A stretch of DNA of 64,000 bases, from positions 1 to 64,000 of the IMG/VR virus record IMGVR_UViG_3300025655_000033; one strand, written 5' to 3'. The translations under genes and the position numbers were made by a program. The notes below the pieces were generated by a model. The model was not told the origin of the DNA. It did not search any database and worked only from the letters and a program-made list of their open reading frames with translations. Positions 8,209-55,535 of the stretch are shown here, in pieces (positions within the stretch are counted from its first letter, which is position 1; the number at the start of each line of letters is the position of its first letter). This stretch comes from a virus.

Positions 8209-9606
8209 ATGGCAGCAGCAATAGAAATATCTTACTTTAATTCGTTTTGGCTAAAACAGGTGCTTGATAGTGGAAGCAATCCTGTATGGCCAAATGGTTA
8301 TCCTTCTACAACTGGTTTTCCAGGAACTGCTGTTACTGGAGACAATAATTGGTTTATAGAAGAATCAAGAATTAGAGGAGGTTACAACAACACACAAGTG
8401 GACTTAGGTGTTAAAGCTTACATAGTAGAAGAAGAACCTAGGCAACAACGTAGATCAAACGCTTTAATATATTCTGGTATATTTAACTCTAGAACAGGTG
8501 TTAATAATACTAATCAGTTTTCTGTAGGTGAATCTATAACTAAATCAACTGATCCAGCAAATGGATCAATTCAAAAGTTATATGCTGAAGATACAAACTT
8601 AATAGTATTCCAAGAAAACAAAGTAAGTAGAGCTTTAATAGATAAAGACGCTATATACTCTGCTGAAGGAAACGCAGCTGTAACTTCAACTCAATTAGTT
8701 ATAGGGCAAATTGTTCCTTACGCTGGTAACTATGGTATTAGTAGAAACCCAGAAAGCTTTGCTGTCTATGGTTATCAAAAGTACTTTACAGATAAAGATA
8801 GAAACGCTGTTTTAAGACTCTCTATGGATGGTTTAACAGAAATATCATCTTATGGTATGCTTGATTATTTTAGAGACAATCTAAGCAGTATAGGAGAGTC
8901 AGGTAAAATAATAGGTGGTTATGATATTCATAATAAAAACTATACTTTATCTTTACAGAAAACACCAGCTTGGCAAGGTAATTCAGACGATGCTTCATCT
9001 TACGCTACTTTAACTTTTGATGAATTAGTTAAAGGTTGGAGTAGTTTTTACACCTATAAACCTACTTTTGTAACAAGTCTTAAAAACAAATTTTATAGTT
9101 TTAAAAATGGATCTATATACGAACACTATAGTAATCCAGGTGGAGATAATAGAGGTACTTTTTACGGATTATACGCTCCTTCAAATATAACTTTTGTATT
9201 TAATGATAATTCAAATGTTTCAAAAAATTTCCAAACTGTAAACTACGAAGGTGATAATGGATGGCAAGTAACTAGTTTCGTGTCTGACAATCAAAGATTT
9301 GATTACGTTAATAGTGGTTGGGTTAGTTATGATGATACAACAGCTCAAATACCAAGTTACAGTCAAACATATAATGATGGTGGAGTTATTTATAGATTAG
9401 GCTTTGATAGAAAAGAAAACAAGTACTTTGCAAACTTAATAAATAATAGTCCAGCTAGAGATGGTGAGGTTGTATGGGGTAATGAAATGTCTGGTATTAA
9501 AGGGTATTTTGCTACTGTTACTTTTTCAACTGACGCTATAACTGACGTAGGTGGTCCAAAAGAACTTTGGAGTGTTGGATCAAATTTTGTAGTATCTTCG
9601 TATTAA
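8209..9606 (+). CDS. Tail hub protein, second half
   Basis: A 465-residue beta-rich protein. Segments such as NWFIEESRIRGGYNN and SIQKLYAEDTNLIVFQENKV recur in tail-hub or stabilisation proteins of Bacteroidota phages, where I recall them in the same polypeptide as the N-terminal pattern of the preceding gene. The repeated aromatic/Gly strand pattern fits a beta-propeller. It is a virion tail component by context; the exact role is inferred. Confidence 0.6.
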   Translation: MAAAIEISYFNSFWLKQVLDSGSNPVWPNGYPSTTGFPGTAVTGDNNWFIEESRIRGGYNNTQVDLGVKAYIVEEEPRQQRRSNALIYSGIFNSRTGVNNTNQFSVGESITKSTDPANGSIQKLYAEDTNLIVFQENKVSRALIDKDAIYSAEGNAAVTSTQLVIGQIVPYAGNYGISRNPESFAVYGYQKYFTDKDRNAVLRLSMDGLTEISSYGMLDYFRDNLSSIGESGKIIGGYDIHNKNYTLSLQKTPAWQGNSDDASSYATLTFDELVKGWSSFYTYKPTFVTSLKNKFYSFKNGSIYEHYSNPGGDNRGTFYGLYAPSNITFVFNDNSNVSKNFQTVNYEGDNGWQVTSFVSDNQRFDYVNSGWVSYDDTTAQIPSYSQTYNDGGVIYRLGFDRKENKYFANLINNSPARDGEVVWGNEMSGIKGYFATVTFSTDAITDVGGPKELWSVGSNFVVSSY

Positions 9607-28310: not shown

Positions 28311-29075
28311 CTACAGATAGTCAATTACTTGCGATGGTTCTACGTTAGCAATTAACTTCTCTACAGCTTGCTTTTTAATCTCAGATATTCTAACGTAAGC
28401 ACTAGGTCCTTCGATGCCTAAAATATCTGCAATTTGATTTGCTGAATGCTTATCACAGTTTAATCCATAACTTAATCTAAGCACTTCAAACTCTCTTTCG
28501 TTTAAATGTTTTTTCAATAAACTAGTTAAGTATAAGTTTAATAAACCTATATTATATGGTTCAGACTGATCAGGTATTTGATGCATGGTGTTATCTTCAT
28601 CATCATCATTTATTTGCTCGTCAATACTAAGGAATATAGAATTAAAAAACATTGCAACCATTTTCTTATCTTTACCATTGTCTTTCCTAATTTCATTTAG
28701 TTTATGCTCTGGTATTCTAATATCTCCCCTGTTTATGTCTATGGCTCTTCTAATGGCTCCTTTTATTCGTTTAGACAGGAAAGACTTTAATGTTTTTTCC
28801 TCGTCTTCTGAGTTGTCTATTGTGTCCCATATTATTTTGTCAACAGCCTTAATCAATCCTAAACTTCCGTCTTGTATTAAATCTGTAATGTCCATAACAC
28901 CGGAAGCTTGTTGTGATGTTGAAAACTTCCTTGCTATGTTTTCTACTAAAGGCAAGAACTTAATTACAAGTTCGTCTCTAGTATACTCGTTAAATGATTT
29001 TTCGCCGACACGTTCAATTGAAGACTTTACATCTTCTTTATATCGTACGTAATTCTGAATGTTGTACTTTTTCAT
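28311..29075 (-). CDS. Phage-encoded RNA polymerase sigma factor (sigma-70 family)
   Basis: A 254-residue protein with sigma region 2 in the N-terminal half (LPLVENIARKF, DLIQDGSLGLIKAVDK, then the KGAIRRAID helix) and region 4 at the C-terminus (LNEREFEVLRLSYGL, NQIADILGI, VRISEIKKQAVEKL). A 40-residue insertion of charged residues separates them and region 3 is reduced, as in small alternative sigma factors. It should redirect host RNA polymerase to phage promoters; the AATACG-N10-GATAAT elements described here are the obvious candidates. The start overlaps the upstream HTH gene by 38 bases. Confidence 0.92.
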   Translation of the reverse strand: MKKYNIQNYVRYKEDVKSSIERVGEKSFNEYTRDELVIKFLPLVENIARKFSTSQQASGVMDITDLIQDGSLGLIKAVDKIIWDTIDNSEDEEKTLKSFLSKRIKGAIRRAIDINRGDIRIPEHKLNEIRKDNGKDKKMVAMFFNSIFLSIDEQINDDDEDNTMHQIPDQSEPYNIGLLNLYLTSLLKKHLNEREFEVLRLSYGLNCDKHSANQIADILGIEGPSAYVRISEIKKQAVEKLIANVEPSQVIDYL

Positions 29076-29691
29076 ATCCGTTGTTTAATAGTTCCTTCTC
29101 TTTTTTGAGTTCATTGGTCATATTACGGTATATGGTTCTTGGTGTACAATTCAATTGTTTAGCTAAATTAGCTACTGTTATTTTATCACCGCAGTCGTTT
29201 ATATATAACATAACATCGTAGATGTCTGACTCGGTAATTTTTTTACTTCTTCCTACAAGTTGTCCTACAATACTTAGTTTATCTGACAAATCTAGTTTAC
29301 AGTTATAATTAAATATAACTTTACGGGTCTTATTAGATGGATCTTGCTCTAAATCGCACATGCTTATTTCATACACGATTTTATTTAGTAAGTCATCATT
29401 TACAGTAAATGTAACAAATCCATTTTTAATATTGCATATAAATTTAGATAAATTTAAAAAATTATCAGGATCAAGTTTTGGATTAAGATACCATAGAACT
29501 AATAGATGCCACTTTAAAGACTTGTATGTATTGATCTTAGCTTTACTTCTAAATAGATCATAACACTCTCTGGTACCCTGTTCATAAAACCAACCCCACT
29601 CATAAGTTGAAGTTGGTTTATCTTTAACTGGTAACCTTCTGTAAAGTATTCTGCTTCGATGTAAATAATCGAGACGACGTTCGTATGACAT
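29038..29691 (-). CDS. Helix-turn-helix DNA-binding protein, possible regulator
   Basis: A 217-residue protein. The C-terminal part has a clear helix-turn-helix, KITVANLAKQLNCTPRTIYR at about residues 170-190. The N-terminal 140 residues are mixed and unassigned. The gene overlaps the sigma-factor start by 38 bases and is cotranscribed with it. Its own start codon (29691) lies inside a 44-bp inverted-repeat element (29686-29729), which suggests autoregulation. It could be a repressor, an activator or an origin-binding protein. Confidence 0.7.
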   Translation of the reverse strand: MSYERRLDYLHRSRILYRRLPVKDKPTSTYEWGWFYEQGTRECYDLFRSKAKINTYKSLKWHLLVLWYLNPKLDPDNFLNLSKFICNIKNGFVTFTVNDDLLNKIVYEISMCDLEQDPSNKTRKVIFNYNCKLDLSDKLSIVGQLVGRSKKITESDIYDVMLYINDCGDKITVANLAKQLNCTPRTIYRNMTNELKKEKELLNNGYEKVQHSELRTI

Positions 29692-29729
29692 TAGCCTATT
29701 ACCCCTTTATATTAACTACCTATTGTCAC
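29686..29729 (-). promoter_or_regulatory. Inverted-repeat operator-like element, copy A
   Basis: A 44-bp element with outer arms TGACATTAG and TATTGTCA and inner TAGCCTATTACCC. It is related base for base to copies at 36290-36332 and 37933-37975. It overlaps the start codon of the HTH gene, so a bound protein would block its translation start or transcription. Confidence 0.7.
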
Positions 29730-30077
29730 GTTGTGACTGTTTATTAATCTAATGGAAACATTATTCCATTTTCCATATTTTACTTTTTTGTTAACCAAAA
29801 AATCAATTTTTTTAGTCCAACGTTTATTCATGCGATCACGAATATACCAAATGCCATTCATAGGTCCAGCATTCTCTACGCAAATTGTTTTACCCATAGT
29901 AAAACCTATTTTTTCAAGATCTCTTGATACTGCCACTATTCTATGCTTTTCAGCAGCATCTAAATCAATAACAAATCCTGTCGCTGTTATATTCGGAGTT
30001 TCATCTGTTTGACCAGGTACTGCATTGTAAACAGTTGCTGTTACGCATGCTACTATACTTGCTATTAATGTTTTCAT
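29712..30077 (-). CDS. Secreted protein with 3D/RlpA-like double-psi beta-barrel
   Basis: A 121-residue protein from the ATG at 30077; an upstream ATG at 30107 lies before the signal. Residues 1-18 (MKTLIASIVACVTATVYN) make a signal peptide. The mature part has TATGFVIDL, then AVSRDL and a GxxxYIRDRMN...IDF segment, the layout of 3D-domain or RlpA-like barrels that act on peptidoglycan. It may be an envelope-remodelling or lysis-accessory protein; the Asp residues of the 3D family are only partly visible. It ends 20 bases before the sigma/HTH operon start. Confidence 0.6.
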   Translation of the reverse strand: MKTLIASIVACVTATVYNAVPGQTDETPNITATGFVIDLDAAEKHRIVAVSRDLEKIGFTMGKTICVENAGPMNGIWYIRDRMNKRWTKKIDFLVNKKVKYGKWNNVSIRLINSHNVTIGS

Positions 30078-30113
30078 AATTTTTAATTTATATATATGTG
30101 TAAACATATTGGT

Positions 30114-31629: not shown

Positions 31630-31651
31630 TGTGTTTGTTTTAATTGTTATA

Positions 31652-31686
31652 TAATTATTATCTAGCTTATTGCGTATTGATTTTGT
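31652..31686 (-). promoter_or_regulatory. Phage promoter-like element, copy 1
   Basis: On the minus strand the element is AATACG, 10 bases, then GATAAT followed by A/T-rich DNA. It overlaps the stop codon of the DnaA-like gene and lies about 25 bases upstream of the KTSC gene, whose operon it would drive. It is the left-most and least perfect copy: the 3' part reads GATAATAATTATA instead of GATAATATATAT. Confidence 0.6.
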
Positions 31687-32135
31687 AATTTGTATCTATT
31701 GTTTTCTACAGTATTTTTAGAAATATGCTTAGCGCTTATGTCTTCTTTCTTTTGTTCAAGTACAGCTATAGTATTTTTTAATTCTAATATTCTATCATTT
31801 ATCTCGTTGATAGTTTTAACTTCTTGAACCTCAGATACATATATGTTTTCTACTTTTCTGTATAATTCCTCTATATCTCTTTCGTATGGTAATTCATGTT
31901 CAAAGTTTTTTACACTGTGCAATACAGTTGCATGATCTTGACCCATACTTTTAGCTATTGCAGAACAACCTGCCGTAGAATAATCCATACATAATTTATA
32001 GTAAACCCAACGTAGCATTTTGTATTCACGCTTACGTGTATTTACTTTGTATGAGTACTCACCAGCTTCGTCTAGTATTTTATAGTAGAAGTAGTTTAGT
32101 ATTTTTTTATTTGATGGTGTGATTCTTGGTGTCAT
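31662..32135 (-). CDS. DnaA domain IV-like DNA-binding protein
   Basis: A 157-residue protein. Residues 57-80 (CSAIAKSMGQDHATVLHSVKNF) match the DnaA C-terminal signature, in which the GxDHxTVxH helix-turn-helix reads the DnaA box. The preceding helices resemble the rest of domain IV, and the AAA+ ATPase domain is absent. The C-terminal 60 residues form a coiled coil. Stand-alone domain IV proteins could direct the host initiator or replicon to phage DNA, or block host initiation. Confidence 0.78.
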   Translation of the reverse strand: MTPRITPSNKKILNYFYYKILDEAGEYSYKVNTRKREYKMLRWVYYKLCMDYSTAGCSAIAKSMGQDHATVLHSVKNFEHELPYERDIEELYRKVENIYVSEVQEVKTINEINDRILELKNTIAVLEQKKEDISAKHISKNTVENNRYKLQNQYAIS

Positions 32136-32145
32136 ATTTTTGTCT

Positions 32146-32406
32146 TTAATCTAATAATATCATGTAAGCTTCTGCGTTTGAATGCCTAAACCAGTCTAGT
32201 CCTTTTCTAAATTCAGAGTCTATTTTTTTATTAGACTTACGCATTTCAATTAACCATTGAGCACCGAGTATAAAATCATACATAGACAATTCGTTGTTGT
32301 TTAATTCCGCTTCTGCTCCTGTAAAAGGATTTTTAACAGTATCACCAGTTGTGTATACTGTGCCTTTAAACCATTTGGGTAAACCCATTTTTTCTTTTGT
32401 TTTCAT
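32146..32406 (-). CDS. Hypothetical protein with WFKGTVYTTGDTV segment
   Basis: An 86-residue mixed protein. The segment GLPKWFKGTVYTTGDTVKNPFTGAEAELNN reads like a small beta-hairpin module seen in other small phage proteins, followed by a helical half ending in NAEAYMILLD. It ends 10 bases before the DnaA-like gene. Function unknown. Confidence 0.55.
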   Translation of the reverse strand: MKTKEKMGLPKWFKGTVYTTGDTVKNPFTGAEAELNNNELSMYDFILGAQWLIEMRKSNKKIDSEFRKGLDWFRHSNAEAYMILLD

Positions 32407-32408
32407 AA

Positions 32409-32756
32409 TTAAAATTTGTGTGACATTTGATTATTTACATACCACTCATTCCATAAGTATTCCCAACTGTCGCTGTCGTCGTCTAATTCGCATGCGTCAA
32501 GTATGTATTGATCAACATATATATCAGATCCTAAATTAATAGCGGATTCAATTTCAGATTGGAGCATAGCAGCTTCCAAGTATATATCTCTATCAGGTAT
32601 AATATTACCCCAATCAGCTTGATCCATAGCTACATATATATCATGACCGTCTGCTGTCATTATTGATTCAAAAGATACATCATATCCAACTCCACCGTGC
32701 TCGGTATCAATTGTTGATCCTGATTTTTCAAGTACTAGTTTTTTGTAATGTGACAT
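32409..32756 (-). CDS. Hypothetical acidic protein
   Basis: A 115-residue, very acidic protein with repeated Asp/Glu/Tyr clusters (YVAMDQADWGN, ELDDDSDSWEYLWNEWY). This low isoelectric point recalls small phage proteins that mimic DNA or bind host enzymes, but no family is recognisable. It lies 2 bases upstream of the next gene in the same transcription direction. Confidence 0.52.
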   Translation of the reverse strand: MSHYKKLVLEKSGSTIDTEHGGVGYDVSFESIMTADGHDIYVAMDQADWGNIIPDRDIYLEAAMLQSEIESAINLGSDIYVDQYILDACELDDDSDSWEYLWNEWYVNNQMSHKF

Positions 32757-32759
32757 AAT

Positions 32760-32858
32760 TTAAAATATTAAGTTAAACATTGATTTAAATACTACAAACA
32801 CAAGTAGTATTACATTCATAATTATCCAGGCCATTATTATTTTTTCTATTGGTCTCAT
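32760..32858 (-). CDS. Small single-pass membrane protein
   Basis: A 32-residue protein: a short charged start (MRPIEK), then a hydrophobic helix (IIMAWIIMNVILLVFVVF) and a polar end. It fits exactly into the gap between the acidic gene and the GP88 gene. Possible membrane microprotein; function unknown. Confidence 0.5.
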   Translation of the reverse strand: MRPIEKIIMAWIIMNVILLVFVVFKSMFNLIF

Positions 32859-32859
32859 A

Positions 32860-33465
32860 TTAATGGTATATTAGTCCGACTTTATTAGTCTTATTAAACC
32901 ATCTGGTTGCATATAGATCATTCTCAGATGCATTAGCATAACCAGCAGCAACTAATTCGTCTGCGGTTTTAAAGATCTCTGTATGACGATCTATGGACTT
33001 GTCTATAAGATCGACTTGCTTGCCTGAATTGCTAAATATAAAGTCATAGTTATTAGGTATATCGGCTTTTTTAACCATGTCGATCATATTGGTATAACTA
33101 TAAAAATTTACTTGTGGATTTTGCTTTGCAATTTGAAACCACTTAGCTAAATACTCACGTGAATAATAATCACCGCTGTCGTGCACTCGTACAAACTTAG
33201 GTTTTTTGCGCTGTATCTCGGCGTGTATAGCACTTATGAAGTCGTCTGTTTTACTGAGCTCATAACGTTTCTCGAACGCAGGCTTAACATTACCCCATAT
33301 GTACGCGCCTTTACGCGCATAACAGAACTTAATACAACCATCTGCCATAGGACAAATAACTCTACCTGTTATACTTTTGTAAGCTGGTAGGCCAAAGTTA
33401 ACTACTTTAACACCCATAAGCTTGCTAGTCTTTTTTAATTTACCGTTTTGTGTTAATAACTGCAT
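32860..33465 (-). CDS. GP88-family (Gene product 88) protein
   Basis: A 201-residue protein with a Cys cluster C38-x5-C44-x3-C48 (CPMADGCIKFCYA) and a conserved segment FVRVHDSGDYYSREYLAKWFQIA near residues 91-113. This is the GP88 family of phage proteins, first seen in actinobacterial phages and related in look to radical SAM or metal-binding proteins; the enzymatic activity is unproven. It is preceded by an overlapping 110-residue gene (13 bases). Confidence 0.75.
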   Translation of the reverse strand: MQLLTQNGKLKKTSKLMGVKVVNFGLPAYKSITGRVICPMADGCIKFCYARKGAYIWGNVKPAFEKRYELSKTDDFISAIHAEIQRKKPKFVRVHDSGDYYSREYLAKWFQIAKQNPQVNFYSYTNMIDMVKKADIPNNYDFIFSNSGKQVDLIDKSIDRHTEIFKTADELVAAGYANASENDLYATRWFNKTNKVGLIYH

Positions 33466-33785
33466 AATACTTCTTGTAACTTATTTGTTAATTCATCTAT
33501 AAAATCAGATGGCTCTGTTTTACCGCCGATACTCCATGTTGTTAGATCTTTTTTAGTATAGCTTTCACTGTATGTTTTCCAATCGTACAATGTATACATA
33601 TTATCATTGAACTCAAATACCCATTCGTATTGAACTTTGCCATCACCTGAATCATCTGGTGAATAAGTTGGTGCGCCAAAGACAAGTATTAGATCATTGT
33701 AGTAGTAGCCGTGTAATGAACCTACTTTGTGAGTGCCATGTGTTGCTGATCTCCAGTCGGATTCGTGTTTAGTTAGTTTTTTCAT
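33453..33785 (-). CDS. Conserved hypothetical protein, Trp/Tyr-rich
   Basis: A 110-residue protein with a polar beta-rich body (FGAPTYSPDDSGDGKVQYEWVFEF) and a helical C-terminus. It overlaps the GP88 gene, suggesting coupled expression. The segment DWRSATHGTHKVGSLHGYYY is distinctive but I cannot name a family. Confidence 0.55.
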   Translation of the reverse strand: MKKLTKHESDWRSATHGTHKVGSLHGYYYNDLILVFGAPTYSPDDSGDGKVQYEWVFEFNDNMYTLYDWKTYSESYTKKDLTTWSIGGKTEPSDFIDELTNKLQEVLCSY

Positions 33786-33786
33786 G

Positions 33787-33975
33787 TTACCAAGTTTTAG
33801 TTAAATGTGTGTTATAGTATTGCTTTAATGTTTTGTTGAATAAATCCATTGCAGCATTGTCTGTTTCTTTGATTAAATCTTTATCGTAAAGCATTTCTAA
33901 TAACTGCTCGCTAACAAAGTCACATGTTAACTCATAAAGATCACTAGATAATTCTTGATACAGTTGCTTGTTCAT
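33787..33975 (-). CDS. Small helical hypothetical protein
   Basis: A 62-residue helical protein (LYELTCDFVSEQLLEMLYDKDLI). It starts 24 bases from a promoter-like element at 33999-34032, within TATAACTATG, so it may head its own transcription unit. Function unknown. Confidence 0.52.
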   Translation of the reverse strand: MNKQLYQELSSDLYELTCDFVSEQLLEMLYDKDLIKETDNAAMDLFNKTLKQYYNTHLTKTW

Positions 33976-33998
33976 AGTTATAATATTTAATTGTTATA

Positions 33999-34032
33999 CA
34001 TATATTATCGTTAGTGCTACGTATTATTTTTG
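33999..34032 (-). promoter_or_regulatory. Phage promoter-like element, copy 2
   Basis: Minus-strand AATACG-N10-GATAATATAT with an A-rich upstream stretch. It overlaps the 3' end of the 34017-34247 gene and lies about 25 bases before the next start, at 33975. Confidence 0.7.
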
Positions 34033-34247
34033 CAATACTTTTCTTCATAAGCTAATAAGTATTCAATTTGCTCTTTAATATCACGGAACTTTCTTTTTAC
34101 CTGATAGATCAATGGACCTTGGTGGTATGGATTGTCTTGATTAGTTTTAAATCTTACGTACTTGGTTTTAGGGTAGATACCTGCCCATTTACCGTTTGAT
34201 AGTGTTACGTATATATTACCTTTTTTTGTTACTTTAGTTATTTCCAT
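34017..34247 (-). CDS. Hypothetical protein, small beta-rich then helical
   Basis: A 76-residue Lys/Tyr-rich protein: a beta-like start (TKVTKKGNIYVTLSNGKWAGIYP) then a helix (IKEQIEYLLAYEEKYCKN). Its stop region carries promoter copy 2. I recognise no family; nucleic-acid or small-ligand binding would fit the basic composition but is not shown. Confidence 0.52.
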   Translation of the reverse strand: MEITKVTKKGNIYVTLSNGKWAGIYPKTKYVRFKTNQDNPYHQGPLIYQVKRKFRDIKEQIEYLLAYEEKYCKNNT

Positions 34248-34249
34248 AA

Positions 34250-34405
34250 TTATTTTATCTTGTTTTTGCGTGTGTATAGCACTTGTAATAGATCTGAAGC
34301 TTTATACATATCTAACTTTTCGTTAGTGTCTCGCTTGTGATCTACTAGTAAATGCAAGCCATCTATTAATGAGTCTAGTTGTTCTGAGTTAAAAAATAAG
34401 TTCAT
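34250..34405 (-). CDS. Small helical hypothetical protein
   Basis: A 51-residue protein taken from the ATG at 34405 (MNLFFNSEQLDSLIDG). A longer reading frame to 34483 exists, but it would overlap the zinc-ribbon gene almost completely. Helical, with polar ends; function unknown. Confidence 0.5.
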   Translation of the reverse strand: MNLFFNSEQLDSLIDGLHLLVDHKRDTNEKLDMYKASDLLQVLYTRKNKIK

Positions 34406-34499
34406 CTTCGTCTTCGTTATAAAATTCAGCGTGTTCTTTGCAGTCGGAGCAAATATCCGTTTCAAACCATGGCGATGCGCCACAACAGTTACTTTCCAT
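34389..34499 (-). CDS. Zinc-ribbon microprotein
   Basis: A 36-residue protein with Cys at the start (NCCGASPWFETDICSDCKEHAEF): a CxxGAxxxx...CxxC arrangement that can bind one zinc ion. The C-terminus is Asp/Glu-rich. Similar tiny zinc ribbons are common in phage early regions. It overlaps the downstream gene by 17 bases. Confidence 0.6.
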   Translation of the reverse strand: MESNCCGASPWFETDICSDCKEHAEFYNEDEDELIF

Positions 34500-34501
34500 A
34501 A

Positions 34502-34801
34502 TTAATCTTTTAAATATTTACGTAATTCTCTATCTTCTACTTGTAATAAGAAATCCCACAATAAATTATAAAAATCTTCCATATTATCCCATTCACATTC
34601 GTCGTGGATAAAATTCCACTTATCAGATAATGGTACGCCAACATATCTTTCTATAGTTTCTTTATCAAAGTGAAAATCATATGTTATCTTTAGGTATATA
34701 TCTCTTAACACTTCGTCAGCGTCATTGAAGGATAACCATTTTAATAAATGTCTTTTTAATATTTTTCGTTCTTCGTTATTTAATAAAATTTCTTTAGTCA
34801 T
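34502..34801 (-). CDS. Hypothetical helical acidic protein
   Basis: A 99-residue protein, rich in Leu, Asp and Trp, predicted to be mostly helical. It starts in TATAATTATG, about 25 bases downstream of promoter copy 3. Function unknown. Confidence 0.52.
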   Translation of the reverse strand: MTKEILLNNEERKILKRHLLKWLSFNDADEVLRDIYLKITYDFHFDKETIERYVGVPLSDKWNFIHDECEWDNMEDFYNLLWDFLLQVEDRELRKYLKD

Positions 34802-34826
34802 AATTATATTGTTTTAATTATTATAC

Positions 34827-34860
34827 ATATATTATCTTAGGTGCTACGTATTATTATTGT
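34827..34860 (-). promoter_or_regulatory. Phage promoter-like element, copy 3
   Basis: Minus-strand AATACG-N10-GATAATATAT. It overlaps the stop of the small membrane-protein gene and precedes the start at 34801. Confidence 0.7.
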
Positions 34861-34979
34861 AAATTAGCAAGGATCATTTCTACTAGAAAATATGCGCCTG
34901 ATATTATAGCTGAGGTTGCAGCGACAAATAGTACGCATGACCACGTGTATAGCATAGCGTTAGTTATCTTATTCTTCAT
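34854..34979 (-). CDS. Small membrane protein
   Basis: A 41-residue protein with one hydrophobic helix (WSCVLFVAATSAIISGAYFLV). Its 3' end overlaps promoter copy 3 and its start overlaps the stop of the 34969 gene. Single-pass membrane microproteins can be holin-like or inhibitors of host functions; neither is shown. Confidence 0.5.
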   Translation of the reverse strand: MKNKITNAMLYTWSCVLFVAATSAIISGAYFLVEMILANLQ

Positions 34980-35133
34980 CTTGTATTTCTTTTATTATAT
35001 CTGTTAATTCTTCTAAGTTATTTAAATGGTAGTGTGAATGGTATTCATCACCTAGTTTAATAGTGGTATCTATTAAGTCATTATACTCTGATCCAGTGAA
35101 CCAGATTTCTATGTTTAATTTCTTTGTTAACAT
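34969..35133 (-). CDS. Small acidic hypothetical protein
   Basis: A 54-residue protein with His/Tyr cluster HSHYH near residue 33 and a Glu-rich helical tail. Its start overlaps the stop of the next upstream gene by 7 bases. Function unknown. Confidence 0.5.
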   Translation of the reverse strand: MLTKKLNIEIWFTGSEYNDLIDTTIKLGDEYHSHYHLNNLEELTDIIKEIQDEE

Positions 35134-35396
35134 GACGCCCAACCTATAAAGTGATATTTATCTTCTGTTTCAAAGTACACACACTCGCGTTTGCTTATTT
35201 TATCTAAAGCATCATCGTAGTGCTCATCGCTTTCGGGTTCTTTAATTTCGCCTGATAAACTGCATGTAGCTATAGTGCCAGAGTAAGGATCGTGGCCATA
35301 CTCATATACTGCGTCTTCTACTAGTTCTCTAAACGCTTGCTTTGCGCTTTCATAATTCTTTTTTAATACTGATTGGTGAAAGGATGTTGCTCCCAT
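35127..35396 (-). CDS. Hypothetical protein, conserved small phage type
   Basis: An 89-residue protein. Helical start (SVLKKNYESAKQAFRELVEDAVYEYG), then a segment GTIATCSLSGEI and a C-terminus ending YHFIGWASC. I recall this layout (a helix, then TIxxC, then a GWASC-like end) from unnamed phage proteins but can give no function. Confidence 0.55.
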   Translation of the reverse strand: MGATSFHQSVLKKNYESAKQAFRELVEDAVYEYGHDPYSGTIATCSLSGEIKEPESDEHYDDALDKISKRECVYFETEDKYHFIGWASC

Positions 35397-35415
35397 AGTT
35401 ATATTATTTTAAGTG

Positions 35416-35577
35416 TTAGAAATAATCTTGTCTAATAAAGTTATTAATTATATTGTGTACTTTAATTTGATTAGTTAAAGCTAATGAGTTAAACTCTTCA
35501 TCGTGTTTCCAATTCTTTAAGTCGCTTTTATCTTGCCACTTAGTGTAAATCTTGCGTGCGATTTCTTGATTTGTCAT
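35416..35577 (-). CDS. Small hypothetical protein
   Basis: A 53-residue protein from the ATG at 35577 (MTNQEIARKIY), preceded by TATAACTATG, the preferred start context here; a longer frame lacks such a start. Helical, moderately basic. Function unknown. Confidence 0.5.
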   Translation of the reverse strand: MTNQEIARKIYTKWQDKSDLKNWKHDEEFNSLALTNQIKVHNIINNFIRQDYF

Positions 35578-35584
35578 AGTTATA

Positions 35585-35761
35585 TTATTTAGTATTGTTA
35601 TCAAGTGCTCCGTTATAAAATTCTTCTTCAAGTATATTAACTATTGCTTCCATAGCTAATACTGCTTCGTATGGCGTAGCATAAGGTGTATTCTCATACG
35701 CTATAGCTACTTTACCTATAGATTCTATTATTTGTTCTTCAGTCATAGGACACTGTCTCAT
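35585..35761 (-). CDS. Small hypothetical protein
   Basis: A 58-residue helical acidic protein (EEQIIESIGKVAIAYEN...). Its start overlaps the upstream stop in an ATGA arrangement (4 bases), implying translational coupling. Function unknown. Confidence 0.5.
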   Translation of the reverse strand: MRQCPMTEEQIIESIGKVAIAYENTPYATPYEAVLAMEAIVNILEEEFYNGALDNNTK

Positions 35762-35919
35762 AGTTTATTTATTTTATTAGATAAAGCGTATGCATCTAGT
35801 GCTTGCTCTATAATATTTATAATTTCTAATTTACTTGCATTATTTTCTTGTGCTTTATATAATATATAGCGTATATCACTGATTAATTCTTCAGTTTCTG
35901 TAAGATTTTTAGTGGACAT
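35758..35919 (-). CDS. Small helical hypothetical protein
   Basis: A 53-residue all-helical protein (TETEELISDIRYILYKAQEN...). It starts in ATAACTATG and overlaps the next gene by 4 bases. Function unknown. Confidence 0.5.
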   Translation of the reverse strand: MSTKNLTETEELISDIRYILYKAQENNASKLEIINIIEQALDAYALSNKINKL

Positions 35920-35921
35920 AG

Positions 35922-36125
35922 TTATTTAATGTATGTTAGTGATAAAAATGCGGCGGATATAAAGGTTAAGCCATTGTAGTTAAACCACTCGCGAACTGCA
36001 GAATCTTTTGCTACTTCGGCGAAATTATTAGGTAAGTTAGATACAGTGAAACCTATGTAACGCTTGCGATTTGAGCGTATTAGAGGTAATTTAGAGATTT
36101 TAGTAGTTTTAATAGTTAAAGACAT
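35922..36125 (-). CDS. Small basic protein with C-terminal hydrophobic segment
   Basis: A 67-residue protein: Lys/Arg/Ser-rich first half (TTKISKLPLIRSNRKRY) and a C-terminus ending FISAAFLSLTYIK that could insert in membrane. It lies about 34 bases downstream of promoter copy 4, at 36159. Function unknown. Confidence 0.5.
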   Translation of the reverse strand: MSLTIKTTKISKLPLIRSNRKRYIGFTVSNLPNNFAEVAKDSAVREWFNYNGLTFISAAFLSLTYIK

Positions 36126-36158
36126 AGTTATATATTTTAAGTTATTAATTAATGTATA

Positions 36159-36192
36159 TTTATATTATCAATACTATAACGTATTATTATTG
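36159..36192 (-). promoter_or_regulatory. Phage promoter-like element, copy 4
   Basis: Minus-strand AATACG-N10-GATAATATA, upstream of the start at 36125. The 10-base spacer is a different sequence from other copies, so only the flanking hexamers are conserved. Confidence 0.7.
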
Positions 36193-36289
36193 TAATGAAG
36201 GTGGTTTATTATTTATTAATAGAGAAGGGTAGAGGGATATAATACTCTGTCTCTCTACGCAGAGATATAATTCTCCTTACAGAAAAGTG

Positions 36290-36332
36290 TGACATTAGCT
36301 AGTTAAATAGTAGGGTAACAGGCTATTGTCAC
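36290..36332 (-). promoter_or_regulatory. Inverted-repeat operator-like element, copy B
   Basis: A 43-bp element (plus strand TGACATTAG ... GGCTATTGTCAC) related to copies A and C. It overlaps the stop of the small gene at 36329-36439 and lies about 98 bases upstream of promoter copy 4. Confidence 0.68.
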
Positions 36333-36439
36333 CCCTTTAATTTGTCTAGTGATTTCTCTAATTCCATTATATATTCCACTAACTCGTTTTTATCCCACTC
36401 CATTAGTGCTGAGTATTCGCTTAAGATCATTGCTTGCAT
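36329..36439 (-). CDS. Small hypothetical protein
   Basis: A 36-residue helical protein (MQAMILSEYSALMEWDKNELVEY...). It starts in AATAATTATG and lies about 15 bases from promoter copy 5. Its 3' end lies in operator-like copy B. Short, so supported mainly by context. Confidence 0.45.
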   Translation of the reverse strand: MQAMILSEYSALMEWDKNELVEYIMELEKSLDKLKG

Positions 36440-36453
36440 AATTATTTATTTTA

Positions 36454-36490
36454 TATATATATTATCTTATGGTGTACGTATTATTTTTGT
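36454..36490 (-). promoter_or_regulatory. Phage promoter-like element, copy 5
   Basis: Minus-strand AATACG-N10-GATAATATATATATA, with ACAAAAAT immediately upstream. It precedes the start at 36439. Confidence 0.72.
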
Positions 36491-36509
36491 TGAGCGCAAG
36501 TGTATAGCA

Positions 36510-36740
36510 TTAAGAGATAATTTCCCTTAACGCTACTGGAACACTTGTTGAAGAAGTATAGCTTTTATATTTAATAAAGCAAGGCATCACTTCGAGTTTC
36601 GCTTGCATAATTTTATACGCTTCGTCGTGATTGTAAGTTACTTCTTTTCCACTTTTGAATTTCACTTTAATAATAGTGTTAGAGCCAATAAGTGATTTTC
36701 TAATTAAGAATCTTTTTGAGTTTAAAGTTGAATTTTGCAT
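36510..36740 (-). CDS. Small protein, paralog 1 of a tandem pair
   Basis: A 76-residue basic protein containing KRFLIRKSLIGSNTIIKVKFKSGKEVTYNHDEAYKIM and ending in a SYTSSTSVP segment. It is clearly homologous to the 80-residue protein at 37241-37483, with about two thirds of residues identical over the core, so one arose by duplication. Start context AAATAACTATG; promoter copy 6 lies about 45 bases upstream. Function unknown. Confidence 0.62.
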   Translation of the reverse strand: MQNSTLNSKRFLIRKSLIGSNTIIKVKFKSGKEVTYNHDEAYKIMQAKLEVMPCFIKYKSYTSSTSVPVALREIIS

Positions 36741-36783
36741 AGTTATTTAATTTAAGTTATTAATTATTATTTTTTAGTTACAT

Positions 36784-36817
36784 ATATATTATCTTGTAGC
36801 GAACGTATTATTTTTGT
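36784..36817 (-). promoter_or_regulatory. Phage promoter-like element, copy 6
   Basis: Minus-strand AATACG-N10-GATAATATATAT; upstream of the paralog-1 gene start at 36740. A T-rich stretch separates it from the start. Confidence 0.72.
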
Positions 36818-36907
36818 CGAGCGTAGCGAAGTGCTATACACGCCTGGCTGCGTTAACTATATTGCATGACGGAGTCTACTCTTCCGACGCTATTTCAAAG
36901 TCAGGCC

Positions 36908-36943
36908 TTATATATTATCTTAGTAGCAGCGTATTACTTTTGT
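36908..36943 (-). promoter_or_regulatory. Phage promoter-like element, copy 7 (no ORF directly downstream)
   Basis: Minus-strand AATACG-N10-GATAATATATA. About 90 bases separate it from copy 6 and no reading frame is visible in that gap, so it may drive a leader or a short RNA. Confidence 0.66.
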
Positions 36944-36974
36944 AATCAAACGCTCCTGTAGAGTTTGTGAGGTC

Positions 36975-37154
36975 CTATTTAAAAGACCTCAACCATTCTG
37001 AAATACCATCATAGTATTCCTTCATTACAGGTGACTCAGCACATGTATAATAAGGTTTAGAGAACATTGCTTTAGTTTCTCTACCTAGAGCATTACTATA
37101 GGTTATAGAGTAATAGTTTGATCTTGGATTGTCGGTGATTTTAAATGGTATCAT
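36975..37154 (-). CDS. Small hypothetical protein
   Basis: A 59-residue protein (MIPFKITDNPRSNYYSITYSNALGRE...) starting in ATAATTATG, 14 bases downstream of promoter copy 8. Polar, with Tyr and Ser clusters. Function unknown. Confidence 0.5.
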   Translation of the reverse strand: MIPFKITDNPRSNYYSITYSNALGRETKAMFSKPYYTCAESPVMKEYYDGISEWLRSFK

Positions 37155-37167
37155 AATTATTTATTTG

Positions 37168-37202
37168 TATATATTATCTGAAGTTAAACGTATTCTTTTT
37201 GT
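37168..37202 (-). promoter_or_regulatory. Phage promoter-like element, copy 8
   Basis: Minus-strand AATACG-N10-GATAATATA; precedes the start at 37154. Its upstream flank carries the GTGAGGT-type extension seen in copies 7, 9 and 10. Confidence 0.7.
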
Positions 37203-37240
37203 AACCAATTGCGCCTGTTCGCGCTGTGAGGTGTTAAGTA

Positions 37241-37483
37241 CTAAGAGACTGATTTGTCCCTTAGCACTGTTGGTATTGAAGTACTTGATGTATATGATTT
37301 GTATTTGATGAAGCATGGCATTGTATCAAGCTTGTCCTTCATGATTTCATATGCTGCATCATGGTTGTATTCATATTGCTTACCTGATTTGAATGTGACT
37401 TTGATGATCGTGTTTGTACCGATTAGAGATTTTCTGATTAAGAATCTTTTGCTTTCCATAACTTTTTGAGTTGAATTTGACAT
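37241..37483 (-). CDS. Small protein, paralog 2 of a tandem pair
   Basis: An 80-residue basic protein with KRFLIRKSLIGTNTIIKVTFKSGKQYEYNHDAAYEIM and CFIKYKSYTSSTSIP, closely matching the gene at 36510-36740. The start sits in AACAATTATG. Two promoter copies lie upstream. The pair may be small DNA- or protein-binding modules; the function is unknown. Confidence 0.62.
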   Translation of the reverse strand: MSNSTQKVMESKRFLIRKSLIGTNTIIKVTFKSGKQYEYNHDAAYEIMKDKLDTMPCFIKYKSYTSSTSIPTVLRDKSVS

Positions 37484-37527
37484 AATTGTTTGATTTAAAT
37501 TTATATTAATTATTAATTATTTATTAT

Positions 37528-37563
37528 ATATATATTATCTATATGCAAGCGTATTTTTTTTGT
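37528..37563 (-). promoter_or_regulatory. Phage promoter-like element, copy 9
   Basis: Minus-strand AATACG-N10-GATAATATATATA, about 45 bases upstream of the 37483 start. Confidence 0.72.
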
Positions 37564-37611
37564 TCGCAGTCAAAATGCTCAACAATACTCGTGAGGTTGC
37601 TTCGCTGCTTA

Positions 37612-37648
37612 CATATATATTATCTACTCGCAAGCGTATTTATCTTGT
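37612..37648 (-). promoter_or_regulatory. Phage promoter-like element, copy 10
   Basis: Minus-strand AATACG-N10-GATAATATATATA, 85 bases upstream of copy 9. The two are tandem, suggesting additive promoter strength for the right end of the minus-strand early region. Confidence 0.7.
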
Positions 37649-37840
37649 AACGCACATACTGGAATCAAAACGCGCAGTAATAGTCGTGAGGTTGTTTGTC
37701 AACTAGTATATCTCCAGGAAAAAAGCTAAAAGCTAGGGGTATTTCAACGTAAAAGGCAAAACATAAAACGCAAATCATATAAAACACGGGGATCCCGGTC
37801 ATTTTGAAACGCAAAAGGTTTTTGATTGATGTTGTAGAAA

Positions 37841-37860
37841 AGTAGGGGTAACACCCTACT
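37841..37860. other. Perfect hairpin AGTAGGG/CCCTACT
   Basis: A 7-bp perfect stem with a 6-base loop in the main intergenic region, next to the CTACTCCTATATTT direct repeats. It could be a weak terminator for minus-strand transcription, since the reverse strand continues with TTTTCT, or a protein-binding site. Confidence 0.45.
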
Positions 37861-37914
37861 CCTATATTTGTTACAACTTTTTTACTCTACTCCTATATTT
37901 CTAACAATTTTTTT
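37856..37914. repeat. Two CTACTCCTATATTT direct repeats
   Basis: CTACTCCTATATTTGTTACA followed by T-rich DNA, and 31 bases later CTACTCCTATATTTCTAACA followed by T-rich DNA. A tandem arrangement in the only large intergenic gap suggests a binding site or a duplicated promoter region. Confidence 0.6.
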
Positions 37915-37932
37915 TTAAAAAATAAAAAACTA

Positions 37933-37975
37933 TGACATTAGGCTGTTATATTAATGGGTAATAGGCTATTGTCAC
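37933..37975 (+). promoter_or_regulatory. Inverted-repeat operator-like element, copy C
   Basis: Plus-strand TGACATTAG at one end and GGCTATTGTCAC at the other. It ends 5 bases before the AAAATACG of the plus-strand promoter-like element, so a protein bound there would touch that promoter directly. Confidence 0.68.
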
Positions 37976-37976
37976 A

Positions 37977-38010
37977 CTGTAAAATACGATGCTTTCGTGT
38001 GAATATATAA
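37977..38010 (+). promoter_or_regulatory. Plus-strand promoter-like element driving the fibre operon
   Basis: AATACG (37983-37988), exactly 10 bases, then GTGAATATATAA, compared with GATAATATATAT in minus-strand copies. It is the only near-consensus copy in the plus orientation and lies 24 bases before the first gene of the fibre cassette. This supports a shared sigma specificity for early accessory genes and fibres. Confidence 0.68.
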
Positions 38011-38033
38011 AGTATACAAAAAAACACTAAAAA

Positions 38034-53978: not shown

Positions 53979-55535
53979 ATGTCAGACGCAATTGTCAAGA
54001 ACCTAAGTTTCGGTAACGAAGCTAAGGACAAAGTATTTGAAGGTATTACAAAACTCACAAAAGCCGTTAGCTCCACGCTCGGGGCTAGCGGTAAATGTGT
54101 GATGCTAGAAGATGGAAATGGAAGACCAATCATAACTAAAGACGGTGTAACAGTAGCAGATAGTATTATACTATTAGATCCTGTTGAAAATATGGGGGCT
54201 ACACTTTTAAAAGAAGCTGCTAGAAAAACCGTAAGTGAAGCGGGGGACGGTACAACAACCGCAACTGTATTAGCACACGCTATATTAACTGAAGCTTACA
54301 ATGTAGCTGATAAGATTAGCTCAAGAGATTTAAAAATCGGTATAGACAACGCTGTTGAGAAAGTAGTTAAATACTTAGAATCAATTTCAGTTAATATACA
54401 AGGAGATATGATAGATCAAATAGCTACTATATCTACTAACAACGATGCAGAACTTGGTAAATTAATTGGTGATGCTTTTAGATCTGTTGATGAAACAGGT
54501 GTAGTTATGATGGAAACATCGTCAGATGGTACTACAGCAGTAGAAATAGTTGACGGAGTACAATACAACAAAGGGCTAACGAACTCACATTTTGTTACAA
54601 GCAAAAGCCAAAGAGTTGCTGAATTAGAAAATCCTTATGTATTATTAGTTGAATCACCAATTGATAATATAAGACAAATTCAAAGCGTGCTAGAGTTTGT
54701 TATAAAAGGTAATAAGTCTTTACTTGTAATCGCGGACGTAGACCAACCAGTACTTGCAACTTTAGCAATGAATAAAGTCAAAGGTAATTTAAAGATTAAT
54801 GTTATCAATGCGCCAACATACGGTGTAGCTAAAAAAGAAACATTAGATGATCTTGCAATGCTAACTGGTGCTACTATTATAAACGAAGACTTAGGAGATG
54901 ATTTAGATTTAATTAATCCTCAATACCTAGGTAATTGTATAAAAAGTGTAACTACAGACGAAGAAACAATATTACAAGTTGGAGAAGTTTCAGAAGAGGT
55001 TCAAAATACTATAAAAGGTATTAAAGAAAAACTTGTTACAACTAAAGAGCCTTACGAAATAGTAAAGCTTGAAAAAAGATTAGCAAGACTAGCAGCTAAA
55101 ATAGCTATAGTAAAAGTAGGTGCTAATTCAGAAATAGAATTAAAAGAAAAGAAAGATAGAGTTGAAGATGCTATCTGCGCAACTAAAGCCGCAATCAAAG
55201 AAGGTATTGTACCTGGTGGTGGAATTGCCCTGTTAAACGCATCGGAAACAGTTAAAGCTAATACAATAGGTGAAGAAGCGCTGCTAGAGGCTATTAAGGC
55301 GCCATTTAAGACCATTTTAGAAAATGCAAGTATAGAATACCAAGAATCTAAAAGAGGCAAAGGAATGGGTTTAAATGTGATAACTGGTAAAAAGGTTAAT
55401 ATGATCAAACACGGGATTATTGATCCACTACTAGTTACTAAAAGTGCACTTAGAAACGCTGCTTCAGTTGCTACAACTATTTTATCTACGGATTGTGTAA
55501 TTAATAACTTAAGGATTAATGAAGGCAATAGGTAG
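53979..55535 (+). CDS. groEL: Chaperonin GroEL
   Basis: A 518-residue GroEL. The ATP site is intact: KDGVTVAD (Asp55), GDGTTTATVLA (Asp90) and a VEDAICATKAAIKEGIVPGGGIALL segment with the catalytic Asp of the equatorial domain. The intermediate and apical regions follow the usual order. Compared with the 548-residue E. coli protein the C-terminal Gly-Gly-Met tail is absent; the protein ends DCVINNLRINEGNR. It folds phage capsid or internal proteins. The gene overlaps groES by 17 bases. Confidence 0.93.
   Translation: MSDAIVKNLSFGNEAKDKVFEGITKLTKAVSSTLGASGKCVMLEDGNGRPIITKDGVTVADSIILLDPVENMGATLLKEAARKTVSEAGDGTTTATVLAHAILTEAYNVADKISSRDLKIGIDNAVEKVVKYLESISVNIQGDMIDQIATISTNNDAELGKLIGDAFRSVDETGVVMMETSSDGTTAVEIVDGVQYNKGLTNSHFVTSKSQRVAELENPYVLLVESPIDNIRQIQSVLEFVIKGNKSLLVIADVDQPVLATLAMNKVKGNLKINVINAPTYGVAKKETLDDLAMLTGATIINEDLGDDLDLINPQYLGNCIKSVTTDEETILQVGEVSEEVQNTIKGIKEKLVTTKEPYEIVKLEKRLARLAAKIAIVKVGANSEIELKEKKDRVEDAICATKAAIKEGIVPGGGIALLNASETVKANTIGEEALLEAIKAPFKTILENASIEYQESKRGKGMGLNVITGKKVNMIKHGIIDPLLVTKSALRNAASVATTILSTDCVINNLRINEGNR

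What the first reader, a model, noticed from the sequence alone, without database searches (positions are those of the whole stretch)
31652..37648. Array of ten phage promoter-like elements with a fixed 10-base spacer
Ten minus-strand sites share AATACG, exactly 10 variable bases, then GATAATATATAT (one copy degenerate in the last part), with A-rich DNA before them. Positions are 31652, 33999, 34827, 36159, 36454, 36784, 36908, 37168, 37528 and 37612. Nearly all lie 14-45 bases upstream of a small gene. The spacer content differs while its length does not, which is the mark of a protein-read two-box element. The window encodes its own sigma-70-family factor and the motif differs from the usual Bacteroidota promoter (TTTG with TAnnTTTG), so a phage-specific sigma/promoter pair is the simplest reading.
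Basis: partly seen in the sequence, partly recalled or inferred. Interest (0 to 1): 0.85.

Follow-up and report, generated by a model that had tools for sequence, protein, structure and literature searches.

The report
Phage promoter array, three fixed boxes
A marine virus of flavobacteria-like bacteria, and hundreds of its relatives, carry rows of near-identical gene switches with three fixed sequence boxes, always together with the virus's own RNA-polymerase guide protein, which probably reads them.

Summary
Confirmed and extended. Ten exact AATACG-N10-GATAAT sites lie on the minus strand at 31,657-37,640, none elsewhere in the 67-kb record and none in the reversed control. They are not two-box. 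An unbiased matrix from 80 relatives found through the sigma gene gives 478 sense sites, 2 antisense and 0 in the control. It shows three boxes at fixed spacing: TTACAAA (-38 to -32), AATACGA (-28 to -22) and GATAATA (-12 to -6), with a purine at the inferred +1 (99%). Motif and phage sigma travel together: 34 of 38 long contigs found by motif alone carry the sigma, and the other 4 end before its expected position. Five relatives without it lack the array. A distant relative (sigma 55% identical) has nine TTGCAGA-n3-ATAACGA-n9-TATAATA sites at identical spacing, so GATAAT is a -10. The best reading is promoters for host RNA polymerase plus the phage sigma. What reads the middle box is unknown: upstream boxes vary between phages without tracking sigma. 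A co-encoded HTH protein is the only candidate seen. Transcription was not measured. This is a new variant of a known kind.

The parts
37612..37650 (-). promoter 1: TTACAAG-ata-AATACGC-n9-GATAATA, inferred +1 G at 37612
37527..37565 (-). promoter 2 (GAACAAA-aaa-AATACGC-n9-GATAATA), inferred +1 A; ATG of 37241-37483 gene at +45
37166..37204 (-). promoter 3, inferred +1 A; ATG of 36975-37154 gene at +13
36907..36945 (-). promoter 4, inferred +1 G; next start codon at +168, after promoter 5
36781..36819 (-). promoter 5, inferred +1 G; ATG of 36510-36740 gene at +42
36454..36492 (-). promoter 6, inferred +1 A; 36-aa ORF at +16
36157..36195 (-). promoter 7, inferred +1 A; ATG of 35922-36125 gene at +33
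34824..34862 (-). promoter 8, inferred +1 A; ATG of 34502-34801 gene at +24
33997..34035 (-). promoter 9, inferred +1 A; ATG of 33787-33975 gene at +23
31650..31688 (-). promoter 10 (weakest copy), inferred +1 A; ATG of 31402-31629 gene at +22; heads the run of genes that leads to the HTH and sigma genes
28311..29075 (-). phage sigma-70-family factor, regions 2 and 4 present, about 253 aa; proposed reader of at least the -10 box
29038..29691 (-). F4: 216-aa protein with C-terminal HTH, overlaps the sigma start; co-travels with sigma; candidate co-reader

Best explanation
The ten elements are phage promoters recognised by host core RNA polymerase carrying the phage-encoded sigma factor (28311-29075). 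Sigma region 2 reads GATAATA as the -10 element and transcription starts 12 bases after its G, at a purine. Sigma region 4 contacts TTACAAA at the -35 position. A further box, AATACGA at -28 to -22, adds specificity and is bound by a partner, most plausibly a phage DNA-binding protein such as the neighbouring HTH protein F4. Each promoter fires a short transcript over one or a few small genes. The last one also feeds the run of genes that contains sigma itself, which would give positive feedback. Shown by computation: motif, spacing, strand bias, intergenic placement, +1 purine, co-occurrence with sigma and F4, and the same architecture with a TATAAT -10 in a distant relative.
For: Spacing: 230 of 232 sense-strand AATACG/GATAAT pairs in 80 sigma loci are exactly 10 apart. 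Unbiased matrix: 478 sense, 2 antisense, 0 reversed. Three boxes and the position-28 purine at 99%. 376 of 402 sites lie outside sense ORFs, against 26% of random points; median inferred leader 20 nt, close to the 24-nt median in Flavobacterium (PMC9723704). Motif-first contigs: 34/38 carry sigma, and the other 4 end before its position. The model finds 4-20 sites in each of 30 motif-bearing virus records and 0, 0, 0, 0 and 1 weak in five relatives without sigma. The sigma fold and regions are confirmed, with a full-length match to FliA; its region around 2.4 (KRIKGAIRR...RIPEH) is the most conserved stretch, as GATAATA is of the promoter. Out of sample, L301 (sigma 55%) has nine sense-only TTGCAGA-n3-ATAACGA-n9-TATAATA sites at identical spacing upstream of F4-sigma.
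Against: Upstream-box dialect does not track sigma distance or region 4 (Spearman near 0). L130/L131 share the window's sigma recognition helix but have lost TTACAAA, and L171/L182 change it to TTGCAAA with nearly the same helix as TTACAAA phages. The G-to-T change at -12 in L301 has no obvious residue change in region 2.4. The co-occurrence is within one clade and therefore not phylogenetically independent. No expression data exist.
Confidence: 0.74

Rival explanations
1. T4-middle-like: a phage activator (F4 or another) binds the 17-bp TTACAAA-n3-AATACGA element centred near -30 and recruits polymerase; the sigma (phage or host) reads only the -10.
For: The upstream 17 bp evolve as a unit and independently of sigma. 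F4 has an HTH and lies next to sigma in nearly every phage. F4 is missing from whole contigs only in L135/L158/L165, exactly the phages whose upstream box is TCGAAA instead of ACAAA.
Against: The F4 loss is a single evolutionary event. F4 recognition helices do not change where the dialect changes. L168/L176/L206 have F4 but no AATACG box. F4 matches no known fold.
Confidence: 0.3
2. Early promoters read by the host's own sigma factor; the phage sigma serves late genes.
For: The array sits over small genes in a position typical of phage early genes, and sigma lies downstream of it, so something else must start the cycle. The L301 -10 is a plain TATAAT.
Against: Flavobacterial sigma-A uses TAnnTTTG, and the three other mapped classes are sigma-54, TAnnTTGY and ECF CGT (PMC9723704). 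Related Flavobacteriaceae phages without the sigma lack the array. No convincing motif copy lies ahead of the forward (structural) genes.
Confidence: 0.15
3. Single-subunit phage or virion RNA polymerase promoters; AATACGA plus 9 bases plus G matches the layout of the T7 promoter.
For: The virion genes show crAss muzzle similarity, and some crAss-like phages carry a virion polymerase (own knowledge).
Against: No RNA_pol family match in 26 contigs (the control did not ring, so weak) nor in the window's large proteins scanned. No DFDGD-like motif. The variable part is where T7 is most specific. The L301 version keeps the spacing but has ATAACGA and TATAATA.
Confidence: 0.03
4. Operator or stoperator array for a phage repressor rather than promoters.
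For: Repeated, one-directional, intergenic sites.
Against: A -10-like box with a fixed +1 purine and leader length, and -10 variation G/TATAAT, fit initiation; no repressor-type palindrome.
Confidence: 0.04

Closest known systems
Phage 7-11 sigma SaPh711_gp47 and its late promoters GTAAtg-(16)-aCTA (PMC8948821)
   Same: Phage-encoded sigma-70-family factor directing host RNA polymerase to a repeated bipartite element.
   Different: Different sequence; eight promoters for late genes; no middle box; enterobacterial host.
phiEco32 gp36 promoters tAATGTAtA (PMC8948821, PMC4331800)
   Same: Phage sigma with its own -10-like element, start 6-8 bases downstream, used for middle and late genes.
   Different: Single box, sigma lacks region 4; here three boxes and a region 4.
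FliA/sigma-28 class (own knowledge: TAAA-N15-GCCGATAA)
   Same: Size, full-length sequence match (1rp3), GATAA-type -10.
   Different: Only distant similarity (FliA_WhiG score far below cut-off); FliA promoters have no box like AATACGA at -28 to -22.
T4 middle promoters, MotA box plus -10 (own knowledge)
   Same: Element centred near -30 at fixed distance from a -10.
   Different: No MotA or AsiA homologue seen; a TTACAAA block also lies at -35.

Membership tests
Phage-sigma-dependent promoter system | Sigma-70-family gene in the same phage | tested here: met
   34/34 motif-first contigs that reach its position
Phage-sigma-dependent promoter system | Repeated promoter element absent from relatives without that sigma | tested here: met
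Phage-sigma-dependent promoter system | Sigma holoenzyme initiates at the element | not testable with these tools
   needs in vitro transcription
Sigma-70 family | Regions 2 and 4 | tested here: met
   Sigma70_r2 above cut-off; r4 E=1e-4 but 22.3 bits against a 24.1-bit cut-off; TIGR02937 above cut-off over residues 32-239; fold
FliA/WhiG subfamily | Scores above the subfamily cut-off | tested here: not met
   TIGR02479 48.6 bits against a 189.6-bit cut-off
Canonical two-box sigma-70 promoter | Only -35 and -10 conserved, with 16-18 bp spacer | tested here: not met
   extra box at -28 to -22; TTACAA to GATAAT spacing 20
T7-type promoter | Single-subunit RNA polymerase gene present | tested here: inconclusive
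   no match, but control did not ring; no match among the large proteins scanned with Pfam
T4 middle promoter | MotA and AsiA homologues | not tested
   no specific search; family scans of nearby proteins showed none
Bacteroidota sigma-A promoter | TAnnTTTG at -7 | tested here: not met
   element carries GATAATA instead

The most novel reading that the evidence does not exclude
A three-box promoter class in which a phage sigma and a co-encoded DNA-binding partner jointly read -35, mid-spacer and -10 boxes at rigid spacing; the upstream half diversifies between related phages without matching changes in the sigma, giving each phage a private promoter dialect.
Probability: 0.35. Interest if true: 0.8.

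Novelty: new variant of a known kind. Interest (0 to 1): 0.62.

Why it matters
It gives a promoter code for a large, mostly uncultured clade of marine phages related to Flavobacteriaceae phages. Hundreds of natural sites and dozens of naturally varied sigma/promoter sets make sigma specificity testable. The box in the spacer has no known reader, and the upstream boxes shift between phages without matching changes in the sigma helix, which points to an unrecognised second specificity factor.

Tried and rejected
Sigma-dialect covariation by distance matrices and by gene family: no signal for sigma or its regions. The one strong correlate (29712-30107) looks by eye like an RlpA-type barrel and is probably phylogenetic. 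F4 as reader of TTACAAA: suggestive loss pattern, but one event and helices do not change with dialect. An arginine in region 2.4 reading the -12 G: not supported, since L301 keeps it with a T at -12. Opposite-strand copy at 37983 (AATACG-N10-GTGAAT): not found by the model at E up to 1. Short structured RNA after the 36,935 promoter: fold no better than shuffles; Rfam none. Host-type TTG/TAnnTTTG promoters in the divergent region: no clear site. Terminase-first 2x2 table: contigs too short. No paper found describing this motif.

Full report
OBSERVATION. They are far beyond chance at the exact-match level.

ANATOMY. The sigma gene (28311-29075) was used to pull 80 related loci from viral contigs. 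On the sigma's strand, AATACG and GATAAT occur at a 10-base spacing 230 times, at 8 and 9 once each and at no other spacing from 5 to 15; the other strand has 3. Iterating a matrix without forcing AATACG gave 478 sense sites, 2 antisense and 0 in reversed sequence. The profile has three blocks: TTACAAA at index -10 to -4, AATACGA at 0 to 6, GATAATA at 16 to 22. There is also a purine at index 28 (99%), usually preceded by T. If GATAAT is the -10 (-12 to -7), index 28 is +1, TTACAAA is the -35 (-38 to -32), and AATACGA is an additional box at -28 to -22. Sites are intergenic (376/402 outside sense ORFs, random 26%), with inferred leaders of median 20 nt and 31 of 391 start codons exactly at +1 (the repeated TA in the motif may inflate that peak, and 15 start codons lie before the inferred +1). 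Mapped Flavobacterium leaders have a median of 24 nt (PMC9723704). In the window, eight of ten have a start codon at +13 to +45.

WHO READS IT. Of 38 long contigs found through the motif alone, 34 encode the sigma. The four others carry true high-scoring sites that point towards a contig end 1-2 kb away, so the sigma position is cut off. A sequence model of the element finds 10 sites in the window's record, 4-20 in 29 other motif-bearing virus records, and none, or one weak hit, in five relatives without the sigma: Cellulophaga phi38:1 and phi19:3, Flavobacterium elemoB, Tenacibaculum Gundel_1, and MW202828, whose terminase is 63% identical to the window's. The empty sigma search in those five had no positive control in the same call, but the same query matched 34 contigs. 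The protein is a sigma factor with regions 2 and 4. It aligns with FliA over its whole length but is far below the FliA family cut-off. Its most conserved stretch covers region 2.4, as GATAATA is the most conserved part of the promoter.

OUT-OF-SAMPLE TEST. Nine sigma relatives in genome bins, mostly phage contigs binned with bacteria, were fetched afterwards. L300 (59%) has ACACAAA and GATAAT or GATATT sites with a mostly degenerate middle box. L301 (55%) scored zero with the matrix at the usual threshold. De novo word-pair counting then found nine sense-only sites upstream of its F4-sigma pair: TTGCAGA-n3-ATAACGA-n9-TATAATA, with the same spacings. The -10 there is the textbook TATAAT, which supports GATAAT as a -10 and the homology of all three boxes.

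WHAT DOES NOT FIT YET. Upstream halves differ between phages: TTGCAAA in L171/L182, TCGAAA in L135/L158/L165, GTT-RACACGA without TTACAAA in L130/L131, and no middle box in L168/L176/L206. These dialects do not follow sigma distance or region 4, and near-identical recognition helices go with different boxes. F4, an HTH protein overlapping the sigma start, accompanies sigma in 77/80 loci and in the nine later ones. It is missing from whole contigs only in L135/L158/L165, the TCGAAA phages (L105's contig ends before it); on the sigma tree this is one event. F4 has a confident predicted fold with no solved match. A second specificity factor is therefore likely but not identified.

KNOWN SYSTEMS. 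Phage sigma/promoter pairs are known: phiEco32 gp36 with tAATGTAtA and 7-11 gp47 with GTAAtg-(16)-aCTA (PMC8948821). This is the same kind of system, with different sequence, three rigid boxes and dialects across a large marine clade. Host sigma-A in flavobacteria reads TAnnTTTG, and the other mapped host classes do not resemble this element (PMC9723704). No single-subunit polymerase was found, though that negative is weak.

LIMITS. All evidence is comparative. The co-occurrence is within one clade. Timing (early, middle or late), the start site and the reader protein are inferred.

Noticed in passing
33223-36841 and 4849, 24308, 30876: GTGCTATACAC (one mismatch allowed) occurs 8 times against 1.0 expected, 7 on the minus strand, sometimes just upstream of the promoters; similar words precede sites in L130, L131, L182 and L301.
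   Followed up: partly
36510-36740 and 37241-37483: Two paralogous small proteins (KRFLIRKSLIGxNTIIKV...PCFIKYKSYTSST), each behind a tandem pair of the promoters.
   Followed up: no
8209-9606: C-terminal part matches the crAss phage muzzle protein, so this podovirus-like clade shares virion parts with crAss-like phages.
   Followed up: no
53979-55535: GroEL-like chaperonin encoded by the phage, also in its Cellulophaga and Flavobacterium relatives.
   Followed up: no
31662-32135: Small protein with a DnaA C-terminal helix-turn-helix match; similar proteins in L130 and L301.
   Followed up: no
37640-38030: Divergent region with two direct repeats of AAATATAGGAGTAGRGT and no copy of the promoter motif; possible site of host-read start promoters or origin.
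   Followed up: no
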